The notes beneath the pieces were generated by a model, which was not told the origin of the DNA, did no database searches, and worked only from the letters and a program-made list of their open reading frames with translations. This document shows, in pieces, positions 12,418 through 62,405 of a stretch of DNA of 64,000 nt. Source of the stretch: Clostridia bacterium (GTDB lineage: Bacteria; Bacillota; Clostridia; Oscillospirales; CAG-272); the NCBI GenBank assembly GCA_017428635.1, contig JAFRQK010000044.1:62001-126000 (forward strand), written 5' to 3'. Within the stretch, counting starts at the first letter, position 1. Each line of letters begins with the position of its first letter. The position numbers and the translations under genes are program-made.

Positions 12418-12488
12418 CAGTTCGCCAAAACGATTTTTGACAGTGCTTTTTCGATCTGCGCCGAATGAAGCGGCCCAGCGGTTAGCAA

Positions 12489-12945
12489 GTGAGCGGGCTT
12501 GTAAGCCGGGTTCTGTACGCGAATGGTGATACCGAAGAGGCCTCGGCAGCTGTGTGCCTGCGCATTCGGTAAGCGATCCGCGTGACTGCCATCTATCTGC
12601 GGCGCGCGTTGCCGCGCGTCTTCGGGCTGAAAAGCCCGCGCCACCTGCGGATATGCCGGACCGGCATCGCGCCTGCCGATTGGCGGCGCGACTCCGCATA
12701 CGGTGTTGCTCCGGATAGGGTTTACATTTGCACGCAGTCGCCTGCCGTGCCGGTGAGCTTTTACCTCGCCTTTCCATCTGTACCGTCCGGCGGCAGAGCC
12801 GCCGTCTTGGGTAGGCTATTTCTGTTGCACTTTCCCGGGAGTCGCCTCCGGCGGACGTTATCCGTTATCCTGTCCTGTGGAGCCCGGACTTTCCTCACGC
12901 CGGCGCCTTTCGGCGTCCGGCACGCGGCAGTCCCACCCGCTCGGG
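12489..12945 (-). ncRNA. rnpB: RNase P RNA, bacterial class A
   Basis: The catalytic RNA that trims tRNA 5' ends. On the minus strand the universally conserved blocks appear in order: GAGGAAAGTCCGGGCTCC near the 5' end, then GTGCAACAGA, GATGGAAAGGCGAGG, and ACAGAACCCGGCTTACA near the 3' end. P1 pairs GAGCGGG (5', 12936-12942) with CCCGCTC (3', 12491-12497). Extra helices around 12560-12680 fit class A rather than the Bacillus class B. The promoter is consensus, with the -10 about 7 nt from the predicted 5' end. End points are approximate to a few nt. Confidence 0.95.
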
Positions 12946-39538: not shown

Positions 39539-39612
39539 CGGGGTGTGGCTCAGTTCGGTAGAGCGCTTGGTTCGGGACCAAGAGGCCGCTGGTTCAAATC
39601 CAGTCACTCCGA
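39539..39612 (+). tRNA. tRNA-Pro (anticodon CGG)
   Basis: 74 nt. The acceptor stem CGGGGTG/CACTCCG has one G-T pair and discriminator A. The D arm contains GGCTCAGTTCGGTAGAGC. The anticodon arm CTTGG-TTCGGGA-CCAAG gives anticodon CGG followed by G37. The T arm is CTGG-TTCAAAT-CCAG. CCA is not encoded. It reads CCG codons, which are frequent in this GC-rich genome. A terminator follows at once. Confidence 0.95.
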
Positions 39613-59193: not shown

Positions 59194-59226
59194 ATTATGA
59201 AAGTCCCGTTTAAGGAGATAATAAAG

Positions 59227-60093
59227 ATGAATGATTATATCATATACGCCGATTCGGCATGCGATATCAAGCCTGAGATCCTGAGGGAGTGGGGGATCGA
59301 ATTTCTTCCCCTGACGTTCAGGTTTTCCGATTCCGAAAAGGAATACGTCGACGGAGAGATGGATTCCCGCGATTTTTACGCCAAAATGCGCGCCGGCGCC
59401 GTCGCGAAAACGGCGGCGGTCAACGCCGAGCGGTTCGCCGAGGAATTTGAAAAGATCCTCTCCGCGGGGAAGGATATCCTCTATATCGGATTTTCGAGCG
59501 GCCTTTCCACCACGTACAACTCGGGCCGCCTCGCCGCGGAGCAGCTCCGCGAAAAGTATCCCGACAGAAAGATAATCACGGTCGATTCTCTCTCTGCTTC
59601 CGCCGGCTTCGGCCTTCTTCTCTACCTCACCGTCGGAATGAAGGACGAAGGCGCGACGATCGAGGAAGCGGCGGCGTTCGCCGAGGATACGAAACTCCGT
59701 CTCTGCCACTGGTTCACCGTCGACGACCTCGACTATCTCAAACGCGGAGGCCGCATCAGCCCGACGCTCGCGTTCGTGGGCAACGCGCTCGGCATCAAGC
59801 CGGTCCTGCACATGGACGACGAGGGTCACCTGATCAATATGTCGAAAGTCAGGGGCAGACGCTCCGCCGTCGTCGCACTCGCCGACAAATACGGCGAACT
59901 CGCGCTCGACAAGAAGGGCGGGACGGTGTTCATCTGCCACGGCGATTGCGACGCGGACGTCGAAACGCTCAAAGGCGTCCTCGCCGACAGATACGGCGCG
60001 GAGGTCAAACTCGTGTCTTACACGGGCACCGTCATCGGGGCGCACAGCGGTCCCGGGACGCTCGCTTTATTCTTCGTAGGCGAACACAGATAA
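59227..60093 (+). CDS. DegV family fatty-acid-binding protein (FakB-like)
   Basis: 288 residues. DegV/FakB proteins hold a fatty acid and present it to the kinase FakA. It has IIYADSACDIKPEILREWGI, IEFLPLTFRFSDSEKEYVDG, a TxxVN segment AKTAAVNAERFAEEFEK, YIGFSSGLSTTYNSGRLAA with the Ser contacts, DSLSASAGFGLL, and FTVDDLDYLKRGGRISPT. The C-terminal part has FICHGDCDADVETL. The start is ATG 59227 with AAGGAG 9 nt upstream. fakA lies 155 nt downstream, separated by a structured 107-nt element. Confidence 0.9.
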   Translation: MNDYIIYADSACDIKPEILREWGIEFLPLTFRFSDSEKEYVDGEMDSRDFYAKMRAGAVAKTAAVNAERFAEEFEKILSAGKDILYIGFSSGLSTTYNSGRLAAEQLREKYPDRKIITVDSLSASAGFGLLLYLTVGMKDEGATIEEAAAFAEDTKLRLCHWFTVDDLDYLKRGGRISPTLAFVGNALGIKPVLHMDDEGHLINMSKVRGRRSAVVALADKYGELALDKKGGTVFICHGDCDADVETLKGVLADRYGAEVKLVSYTGTVIGAHSGPGTLALFFVGEHR

Positions 60094-60200
60094 CCCGAAA
60101 GGCGCCTGTACGGCGTATTTCCGTTTCCCGTCCTCGCCTTACGGACCTGTAAGGCGTCGTCCCCGGCGCGGAAATCTGCTCGTATAATCATCCGTTCGGG
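60094..60200 (+). other. 107-nt three-stem element, copy 1 (degV-fakA)
   Basis: It begins directly after the degV stop. Outer stem CCCGAAAGG (60094-60102) pairs with CCGTTCGGG (60192-60200), one mismatch. Middle stem ATTTCCG pairs with CGGAAAT. Inner stem CGCCTTA pairs with TAAGGCG. The unpaired text GCGCCTGTACGGC and TCTGCTCGTATAATCAT is shared with copy 2 at 62067-62173, which is the same length. It contains a TATAAT (60183-60188). It may be a structured RNA, a cis-regulator of fakA, or a repeat. Confidence 0.7.
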
Positions 60201-60248
60201 ACCGGATATTTTCAGTTTTATTCATTTCAGAAAGAAGGAGGCAGCCTT

Positions 60249-62036
60249 ATGTTCAAACCGGGAAAAGGGGAAACTCCGGCTCCGAAGACGAAAATCACGG
60301 TAAAACCGGCGTCTTCCGGGACGAAGAGCAAGACCCGCAAGTCCTCGGGAAAGAAAAAGGACTCCTACGACATCAAGTACCTCACCGGCTGGCTTATGAC
60401 CAAGATGGCGAGGGGCGGCGCGAAGCGCCTTCGCTCCAACGCCGAAAAAGTGAATAAACTCAACGTATTCCCCGTGCCCGACGGCGACACCGGCGACAAT
60501 ATGAGGATGACGATAGAGAGCGGCATCGCCGCTATCGAGAACCTCGACACAGACGACCTCGCAGAGGTCATGCGCGTCTTTTCCCACGGTATGCTGCTCG
60601 GCGCGAGAGGTAACTCGGGCGTCATCCTGTCGCAGTTCTTCGCCGGCACGGCGAAGGGGTTCGAGGGAGCCGTCGAGGCGGATCCTTACACTCTGGGCAG
60701 GGCGCTTCAGATGGGCGTCAAGCAGGCGTACGCTTCCGTCATGACCCCGACCGAGGGGACGATCCTCACCGTCGCGAGAGAGGCGGTCGACTACGCGACC
60801 TCAAAGATAACTCCGTCCTCGACGATCCGCACGTTCTTCGCCGATTTCGTCGGAGAGATGCACGAATCGCTCGAACGCACGCCTGAGGCGCTCGCCGTCC
60901 TCAAGGAGGCGGGAGTCGTCGACAGCGGCGGCGCGGGACTGCTTTACATCATGGAGGGCTTCAACAAAGTCCTCAACGGCGAGGAAGACGCCGACGACGA
61001 TCAGACGTCCGTCCCCGCTCCCGCTCACGCCGCGAAGGCGGCGGCTGTGTCCTCCTCGTTCGGTCCCGACAGCAAGATGGAATACGGCTACTGCACGGAG
61101 CTGCTGATCCAGCTGATGCGCGACAAGACCGATATCGACGCGTTCGACGTCGAGCCGCTCAAGGAGTTCCTGTCCGGGATCGGCAATTCGATCGTCGCGT
61201 TCAGGACCGATTCGATCGTCAAGATCCACGTCCACACGTTCGAGCCCGAGGTCGTTCTCGCTCACTGCCGTGAGTTCGGAGAATTCCTCGCGGTCAAGAT
61301 AGAGAATATGTCGGTCCAGCACACCGAGACCGACGGCGCGGGACCCGCTCCCGAGATCCCGGTCGAAAAGAAGAAATACGGCGTCGTCGCCGTCACGAAC
61401 GGACCCGGCATCAGGGATATGTTCCTTGAGATGGGCGCCGACAGGACGATCGAAGGCGGCCAGACGAACAACCCGTCGACGAACGACTTTATCGAAGCGT
61501 TCGAAAAGATCCCCGCCGAGTGCATCTTCGTATTCCCCAACAACGGCAATATCTTCATGGCGGCGTCTCAGGCGGCGAAGTTCTACACCGACGCGAAAGT
61601 CATCGTGATCCCGAGCAAGGACGTCGGGACCGGCTACGTCGCGCTCACCGCGGCGGATCTCTCGGGGGACGATCCGGACGCGATCGCCGAGGAGATGAAA
61701 GCGGCGATGCAGAACGTGACCTCCGGCTATATCTCGCCCGCGGTCCGCGACGCCGAGATGGACGGCGTAAAGATCCACAAGGGCGACACGATCGGCATCA
61801 TGGGCAAGAAGATCGTTCTCTCCGACCCGGATATGAGATGCGCCGCGTACCGTCTCGCCGTCAAACTCCTCGAGGAGCCGGGCAAGTTCATGCTCACCGT
61901 CTTCAGAGGGGCCGGCACGACGGAGGAAGACCAGGAAGACCTGCGCAGATGCCTTGAAGAGAACTGCCCGTCCGCAGAGGTCTACTTCGTCGACGGCGGT
62001 CAGGAGATCTATCCTTACATTTTCACCGCGGAATGA
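60249..62036 (+). CDS. fakA: FakA-type fatty acid kinase (DhaL/DAK2 domain plus DegV-like C-terminal region)
   Basis: 595 residues. After a basic, low-complexity N terminus (1-40) comes the DhaL domain that binds ATP-Mg: VNKLNVFPVPDGDTGDNMRM with the three Asp, MLLGARGNSGVILSQFFAG, and AGVVDSGGAGLLYIMEGF. A central region follows (YGYCTELLIQLMRDKTDID), then a DegV-like C-terminal domain. With FakB-bound fatty acid it makes acyl-phosphate for phospholipid synthesis. The N-terminal Lys/Ser/Thr extension is longer than in S. aureus FakA. AAGGAGG precedes the ATG. Confidence 0.92.
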   Translation: MFKPGKGETPAPKTKITVKPASSGTKSKTRKSSGKKKDSYDIKYLTGWLMTKMARGGAKRLRSNAEKVNKLNVFPVPDGDTGDNMRMTIESGIAAIENLDTDDLAEVMRVFSHGMLLGARGNSGVILSQFFAGTAKGFEGAVEADPYTLGRALQMGVKQAYASVMTPTEGTILTVAREAVDYATSKITPSSTIRTFFADFVGEMHESLERTPEALAVLKEAGVVDSGGAGLLYIMEGFNKVLNGEEDADDDQTSVPAPAHAAKAAAVSSSFGPDSKMEYGYCTELLIQLMRDKTDIDAFDVEPLKEFLSGIGNSIVAFRTDSIVKIHVHTFEPEVVLAHCREFGEFLAVKIENMSVQHTETDGAGPAPEIPVEKKKYGVVAVTNGPGIRDMFLEMGADRTIEGGQTNNPSTNDFIEAFEKIPAECIFVFPNNGNIFMAASQAAKFYTDAKVIVIPSKDVGTGYVALTAADLSGDDPDAIAEEMKAAMQNVTSGYISPAVRDAEMDGVKIHKGDTIGIMGKKIVLSDPDMRCAAYRLAVKLLEEPGKFMLTVFRGAGTTEEDQEDLRRCLEENCPSAEVYFVDGGQEIYPYIFTAE

Positions 62037-62066
62037 CTGTAGGGTAACAGGAGTTACCCGAATCCG

Positions 62067-62173
62067 CCCGGAGCGGCGCCTATACGGCATATTTTCGTTT
62101 CTCGTCCTTGCCTTATGTCTATAAGGCGGCGTCCTCGGCGCGAAAATCTGCTCGTATAATCATCCGCTCCGGG
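62067..62173 (+). other. 107-nt three-stem element, copy 2 (fakA-yitT)
   Basis: Outer stem CCCGGAGCGG (62067-62076) pairs perfectly with CCGCTCCGGG (62164-62173). Middle stem ATTTTCG pairs with CGAAAAT. Inner stem GCCTTAT pairs with ATAAGGC around GTCT. Compared with copy 1, paired bases change together (middle stem C-G to T-A; outer stem GAA/TTC to GGA/TCC with the mismatch repaired). Conserved TCTGCTCGTATAATCAT is present, with TATAAT at 62155-62160. Confidence 0.7.
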
Positions 62174-62283
62174 TCGAAGAGTTTTGCCGGAGATGATTTT
62201 TGTCCCGGCAAGACAGTGCCCGAAGCAGGTAGCGACTCCTACCTGCGAGGGTGATAACGAAGCAGGGGAACCGTTAAACTCCG

Positions 62284-62309
62284 GAAGTTTGCACTGCAGT
62301 GCAAACTTC
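62284..62309. repeat. Perfect 26-bp palindrome
   Basis: GAAGTTTGCACTG followed immediately by its exact reverse complement CAGTGCAAACTTC. It has no loop, so it reads better as a protein-binding site (dimer operator or nuclease/recombinase site) than as an RNA hairpin. Confidence 0.75.
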
Positions 62310-62405
62310 GTGCGAACAGCAGTATCGGGCAATGACAGCCGACTTTATCTGTTCGCGCAAAACCGGGTTCGGATAGCCCCTGTTACCCTAAAAGGACGTT
62401 TGATA

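What the first reader, a model, noticed from the sequence alone, without database searches (positions are those of the whole stretch)
60094..62173. Two 107-nt elements with three covarying nested stems, one on each side of fakA
Copies at 60094-60200 and 62067-62173 have identical length and layout. Their three stems differ by paired changes: outer CCCGAAAGG/CCGTTCGGG vs CCCGGAGCGG/CCGCTCCGGG; middle ATTTCCG/CGGAAAT vs ATTTTCG/CGAAAAT; inner CGCCTTA/TAAGGCG vs GCCTTAT/ATAAGGC. The unpaired blocks TCTGCTCGTATAATCAT and GCGCCTnTACGGC are conserved. Compensatory change in stems with fixed loops is the mark of a conserved RNA or of a structured repeat under selection. One copy begins at the degV stop before fakA, the other lies before yitT. 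I recognise no known riboswitch or sRNA class.
Basis: partly seen in the sequence, partly recalled or inferred. Interest (0 to 1): 0.75.

Follow-up and report, generated by a model that had tools for sequence, protein, structure and literature searches.

The report
Folded, two-ended jumping DNA element
The two matching hairpin structures beside the fakA gene are one end of a small, gene-less jumping DNA element that is scattered through gut bacteria of one order and keeps a folded shape at both ends, although what moves it is not known.

Summary
Both 107-nt elements are real, at the stated coordinates, with a well-supported structure. They are not a stand-alone RNA. Copy 2 is the left domain (D1) of a 351-bp mobile element, 62040-62390: TA, 27-bp inverted repeat (TIR), D1, second hairpin domain (D2), TIR, TA. 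Its site is empty in all three relatives where that gap could be read; another copy's empty site shows one TA where the filled site has two. Copy 1 is an older relic without TIRs. Covariance models of D1 match 50 of 395 genomes of the family and 67 of 394 of the order. TIRs were in neither model, yet 104 of 118 copies with enough flank have clear ones (median span 279 bp). D2, read inwards from the right end, looks like a diverged D1, so the element is two folded ends face to face. Covariation is very strong, but G-T and A-C mispairs are about equally common (unlike in tRNAs), and copies show no clear direction relative to genes. Best reading: a miniature, TA-inserting DNA transposon family whose folded ends are kept as DNA; the enzyme is unknown. 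The kind is known; the order-wide symmetric folded ends are unusual.

The parts
62040..62390 (+). Whole mobile element, long (351-bp) form, TA...TA
   Evidence: TIR pair; a second full copy in the own genome; site empty in G001, G002 and G007
62040..62066 (+). Left terminal inverted repeat, including TA
62364..62390 (-). Right terminal inverted repeat, including TA
62067..62173 (+).
   Evidence: covariation
62173..62279 (-). Domain D2, a D1-like hairpin facing inwards from the right end; its outer stem is altered in this long form
   Evidence: D2 model R3, 39.5 bits, E 8e-7
62269..62357 (+). 89-nt segment of the long form, with a perfect 13-bp inverted repeat; the 277-bp form has 15 nt here
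   Evidence: by eye from the sequences; inverted repeat I7
60094..60200 (+). Copy 1: D1 only, no TIRs, a relic; G001 and G002 keep about 40 nt of it
   Evidence: (104.5 bits)
59197..60093 (+). degV (neighbour)
   Evidence: PF02645
60249..62036 (+). fakA (neighbour)
   Evidence: PF02734, PF21645, PF13684
62406..63278 (+). yitT (neighbour)
   Evidence: PF02588, PF10035

Best explanation
It is a family of non-autonomous (gene-less) DNA transposons. Each end is TA, a ~27-bp inverted repeat and a ~107-115-nt domain that folds into a nested hairpin; the two ends face each other, giving a ~277-bp element (351 bp in the long form here). A transposase supplied in trans presumably binds both ends and inserts the element at TA, duplicating TA. 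The hairpin domains appear to be kept as DNA shape (a cruciform, or a folded single strand during transposition), not as an RNA product. Shown: copies, TIRs, dispersal, empty sites, covariation, inverted resemblance of D1 and D2, strand-neutral mispairs. Inferred: the trans-acting transposase, and that the mobility machinery reads the fold as DNA. The degV-fakA copy is a decaying relic.
For: Three copies in the own genome; 11, 14 and 14 matches in three of 11 other genus members. Site empty in G001, G002, G007; joined empty site aligned over 159 query and 159 subject bases with a single TA, 78% identity. CM hits in 50 of 395 family genomes and 67 of 394 order genomes. Clear TIRs in 104 of 118 copies with flank, median span 279 bp. 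87 of 95 pairs of the whole element changed on both sides; covariation 0.639 vs 0.197 shuffled and 0.09-0.14 slid. D1/D2 inverted resemblance in both directions. G-T:A-C mispairs D1 36:48 and 35:39, TIR arms 116:110, D2 21:28, tRNA 12:4. Gene orientations mixed at 97 sites.
Against: No transposase or autonomous copy found: the IS630 domain PF13358 is absent in 5 of 5 carriers, and no TIR pair around a transposase was seen. The TA duplication rests on two sites only. Self-complementary stems give weak hits on the wrong strand too: the reverse complement of D1 up to 25 bits and of D2 up to 42.5 bits, so the model-based D1-D2 homology is suggestive rather than proven. A small set showed G-T over A-C in D2 on the + strand, 41:17, and counts on RNAalifold's own + strand structure favoured RNA, 118:36.
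Confidence: 0.7

Rival explanations
1. A mobile structured RNA: the element is transcribed and its RNA fold does the work (regulation, RNA stability, or an RNA step in mobility).
For: Strong covariation; folds of whole elements far below shuffles, z -7.9 to -9.9; + strand G-T excess in the first counts (118:36; 60:38 on mostly Watson-Crick pairs) and in D2 of the small set (41:17).
Against: On the larger sets G-T is not favoured over A-C in D1 or D2, while 11 tRNAs from the same loci are 12:4 by the same rule. D2 resembles the reverse complement of D1. No clear orientation to genes.
Confidence: 0.14
2. The hairpins are not selected: palindrome-correcting mutation (template switching at hairpins) keeps the arms matched while an ordinary MITE spreads.
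For: Gives paired changes with no G-U preference, as seen. Several truncated copies break at the P4 apex, as if the hairpin were a mutation hot spot.
Against: The same nested layout, motifs and ~277-bp length recur across many genera; unselected hairpins should drift in layout. Recent copies keep uncompensated mismatches.
Confidence: 0.1
3. A host-useful intergenic element (terminator, RNA-processing site or insulator) that was once mobile.
For: Copies sit in short intergenic gaps, median 36 and 42 nt from the neighbouring predicted genes. Regulatory roles are proposed for known bacterial MITEs (PMC2229807 and PMC10969869, passages).
Against: Patchy presence (50 of 395 and 67 of 394 genomes), no site conservation around fakA, all gene configurations used.
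Confidence: 0.06

Closest known systems
RUP, repeat unit of pneumococcus (107 bp; proposed IS630-Spn1 mobilisation)
   Same: Short, gene-less, TIRs, insertion at TA, stem-loop (PMC2229807, passages)
   Different: Here ~277 bp with two folded domains, spread over an order, and no IS630 domain PF13358 in 5 carriers
Correia/NEMIS elements of Neisseria
   Same: TA at the ends, TIRs of about 24 bp, stable fold (PMC2229807, passages)
   Different: Confined to Neisseria in that table; the long stem is formed by the two ends of the element, whereas here two internal hairpin domains also covary
CIR repeats of Caulobacter and relatives
   Same: Two hairpin arms joined by a linker, conserved between species (PMC2229807, passages)
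   Different: ~110 bp there; here ~277 bp with outer 27-bp TIRs and TA ends
REP/BIME and RAYT-related repeats
   Same: Palindromes arranged in alternating orientation (abstract start of PMC2817692); movement through folded single strands is recalled
   Different: REPs are short; RAYT-type movement is recalled to leave no target duplication, whereas one extra TA comes with the insertion here
Stowaway MITEs of plants (recalled)
   Same: TA duplication, TIRs, strong fold, mobilised in trans by mariner transposases (recalled, no call)
   Different: Eukaryotic; no two-fold repeated subterminal domain that I recall

Membership tests
Bacterial MITE | Short, repeated, dispersed copies | tested here: met
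   104 copies with clear TIRs, median span 279 bp; many genomes with several copies
Bacterial MITE | Terminal inverted repeats | tested here: met
   104 of 118 copies with enough flank
Bacterial MITE | Target-site duplication | tested here: met
   TA; one joined empty site and the fakA-yitT site; only two sites examined
Bacterial MITE | No transposase gene inside | tested here: met
   Longest closed ORF in 56 full elements: median 49.5 aa, maximum 94 aa
Bacterial MITE | Autonomous relative with the same TIRs | tested here: inconclusive
   None seen; assemblies are fragmented and the searches were by TIR pattern
IS630/Tc1-type mobilisation | Insertion at TA with TA duplication | tested here: met
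IS630/Tc1-type mobilisation | IS630 transposase (PF13358) in carriers | tested here: not met
   0 of 5 carriers; other families of TA-inserting transposases not searched
Known Rfam RNA family | Covariance-model match | tested here: not met
   No match over the element in the window or in 11 loci of relatives
Structure kept as RNA | G-U tolerated over A-C on one strand | tested here: not met
   D1 36:48 and 35:39, D2 21:28 vs tRNA 12:4; against: D2 on the smaller set 41:17 on the + strand
Structure kept as RNA | Discrete transcript | not testable with these tools
   No RNA data

The most novel reading that the evidence does not exclude
An order-wide transposition system whose enzyme recognises each element end by a ~107-nt folded DNA hairpin behind the TIR, so that fold more than sequence is inherited; both ends carry the same fold facing inwards, and the enzyme is not the IS630 transposase that TA insertion would suggest.
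Probability: 0.3. Interest if true: 0.78.

Novelty: new variant of a known kind. Interest (0 to 1): 0.55.

Why it matters
The bacterial MITEs in the passages I read are mostly simple stem-loops of one genus or group. This family keeps a detailed folded domain at both ends across genomes that carry 16 family labels of one order, which gives a rare covariation data set for a structure that looks like DNA rather than RNA. It is common in uncultured gut genomes and tends to lie where their assemblies break. It could easily be mistaken for a new RNA class; the strand-neutral mispair test and the inverted D1-D2 symmetry are reusable ways to tell the two apart. The mobilising enzyme is an open, testable question.

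Tried and rejected
Known RNA: Rfam at gathering and at low threshold gave nothing credible over the element. Cis-regulation of fakA or yitT: rejected, neither site is conserved in relatives. Phage or plasmid carriage: no match in the phage and plasmid collections; five exact viral-contig scans with TIR patterns found nothing. A 17-base core pattern gave 27 viral contigs, but none had a CM hit, so I take them as chance.

Transposase: PF13358 in 0 of 5 genomes. Autonomous copy: TIR patterns in 12 genus genomes, G059 and 26 family genomes (matches in 15 of 26); interiors of TIRs on fetched loci were listed. One TIR pair about 1.5 kb apart holds ORFs that do not look like a transposase by eye (no domain search was done).

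RNA reading: at first favoured by the + strand wobble counts (36;38). Dropped when the pair set was made strand-neutral (D1 39:44, but D2 41:17) and the sets enlarged. In one search, 10 of 65 rows of A6, the lowest-scoring, antisense D2 matches, were dropped before counting. The idea that TIRs vary more than the interior was tested and not supported: mean pairwise identity 0.62 TIR, 0.59 D1, 0.54 D2. Before the TIR count I left out 8 of the 136 D1-sense matches (contig-end or near-duplicate copies), and 10 more lacked flank.

IS110 bridge RNA, integron attC, retron and group II intron readings were considered from memory only and set aside because of the TIRs and the TA duplication.

Full report
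Observation. The block TCTGCTCGTATAATCAT occurs twice in the window, up to 3 mismatches, against 0.03 expected, and both copies fold better than shuffles (z -3.5 and -6.3).

The own genome. A search with copy 2 found three places in the genome: both window copies and one on contig C46, which is a second full 351-bp element with the same ends. Copy 1 has no clear inverted repeats around it.

Close relatives. One search covered 59 genomes, the own one included; of the 11 others of the genus three carried copies (11, 14 and 14 matches), of 24 others of the family and 23 of the order none at the DNA level. Of 27 loci fetched from the three, 23 lie within about 130 bp of a contig end, as repeats that break assemblies do. 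Forms of 351, 277 and 149 bp occur, and 22-bp minis TAGGGTAACAGGAGTTACCCTA. The minis are what a deletion between the GTTACCC inside the left TIR and the one at the right end would leave (inference). The fakA-yitT gap is empty in G001, G002 and G007; in the degV-fakA gap G001 and G002 keep only about 40 nt of the element, and G007, G006 and G011 show none. For the insertion at G001:C8, the two flanks joined through a single TA align to G000:C16 over 159 query and 159 subject bases at 78% identity, so the element comes with one extra TA.

Names. An exact TIR pattern in the collection of 84,980 named species found 70 stretches, in four MAGs only, all titled 'Clostridia bacterium', from sheep omasum, goat rumen and roe deer colon. 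No call named the order, and I did not establish it.

Wider distribution. A covariance model of D1 from nine copies matched 50 of 395 genomes of the family at E<=0.01, 22 of 71 genera. A model from 81 matches matched 67 of 394 genomes of the order at E<=0.001, 33 of 168 genera, with 16 family labels. Some labels rest on one weak hit (f10 and f25, E about 6e-4 and 8e-4), and E-values of these models are rough. Nine candidates per genome were scored, so copy numbers are lower bounds. An independent check: TIRs were in neither model, yet of 128 D1 matches examined 118 had enough flank and 104 of these have a clear TIR pair; median span 279 bp, 5-95% range 261-300. The 14 without clear TIRs include copy 1. 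TIR sequences differ between lineages while the two arms of one copy match.

Structure. On 29 whole elements that I chose out of 56 for diversity and aligned without structure, RNAalifold gives 95 pairs, 87 with changes on both sides; 93.1% of cells pair, covariation score 0.639 against 0.197 for shuffles and 0.09-0.14 for slid partners. The structure came from the same alignment, which favours it over slid versions. D1 alone scores 0.537 on 80 distinct rows and 0.634 on 63 distinct rows, which include ten weak antisense D2 matches; those two alignments were fitted to the model. D2 alone, 41 rows: 30 of 32 pairs changed on both sides. Within the first 24 copies only 6 of 36 pairs had such changes, and recent copies carry uncompensated mismatches.

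Two ends face to face. The D1 model gives 10 weak hits on D2, opposite strand, at E<=0.001, in 9 of 52 loci. With filters off it hits D2 on the opposite strand in 16 of 18 loci at E<=10 (11 of 18 below E 0.02), and on D1's strand in none. The reverse complement of D1 itself scores up to 25 bits in the same run, so this test alone is weak. The reciprocal D2 model hits D1 on the expected strand in 11 of 18 loci at E<=10 (8 of 18 below 0.07) and never on the other, although the reverse complement of D2 itself reaches 42.5 bits there; in the window it hits D1 with 23.5 bits, E 0.004. Plain alignment agrees: D1 is more like reversed D2 than like D2 in 72 of 100 elements, equal in 14, less in 14. 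Consensus sequences share AAAATC-TGCTC next to the hairpin. I conclude, with these cautions, that the element is two related folded ends facing each other.

RNA or DNA. If the fold acted as RNA, G-U pairs should be tolerated and A-C should not. On pairs that are at least 70% Watson-Crick, D1 shows G-T 36 vs A-C 48 and 35 vs 39, bootstrap ratio ranges 0.32-1.16 and 0.69-1.58; TIR arms, all aligned positions, 116 vs 110. D2 shows 21 vs 28 (0.38-1.36), while 11 tRNAs from the same loci show 12 vs 4 (1.9-5.7) by the same rule. Against this, counts on RNAalifold's own + strand structure gave 118 vs 36, a first Watson-Crick filter 60 vs 38, and D2 in the 29-row set 41 vs 17 on the + strand, range 1.2-5.9. 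I take the larger, strand-neutral sets as the better test. Gene context at 97 sites with simple ORF calling: tandem sense 26, tandem antisense 19, convergent 22, divergent 30: no clear direction.

What moves it. Unknown. No TIR pair around a transposase was seen, and the IS630 domain PF13358 is absent from 5 of 5 carriers. The phage and plasmid collections had no match.

Literature. From passages of PMC2229807 and PMC10969869: known bacterial MITEs with TA ends include Correia and RUP, and CIRs have two conserved arms. Eight searches listed no paper on this element as far as titles and abstract starts tell; other papers were seen as listings only. The library is limited, and ISfinder was not available.

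Verdict. It is a miniature, TA-inserting, gene-less mobile element family with two folded ends; copy 1 is a relic. Its kind is known; an order-wide, two-ended fold that seems kept as DNA is unusual, and its enzyme is the open question.

Noticed in passing
L053, L061, L062, L068; L064-L067, L132, L133: 22-bp palindromes TAGGGTAACAGGAGTTACCCTA (or a close variant), in L133 two in tandem sharing TA: minimal forms fitting a deletion between GTTACCC repeats of the full element.
   Followed up: partly
L063, L108, L134: Three truncated copies of the left end all stop at the apex of the P4 hairpin, as if the hairpin were a breakage or template-switch point.
   Followed up: no
window 62269-62357: The long form carries an 89-nt segment with a perfect inverted repeat where the 277-bp form has 15 nt; origin unknown.
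   Followed up: no
G000:C46:32802-34616: The other full copy in the own genome also lies just after a fakA paralogue (38% identical), at a site shared by G001 and G002 by its flank.
   Followed up: partly
L009-L035: 23 of 27 copies fetched from relatives lie at contig ends: this repeat fragments MAG assemblies.
   Followed up: partly
L197:1380-1482 (-): A THF riboswitch match just over its gathering score lies beside an element in a relative.
   Followed up: no
window 12486-12943 (-) and 39539-39612 (+): RNase P RNA class A and a tRNA, the only Rfam matches at gathering score in the window.
   Followed up: no
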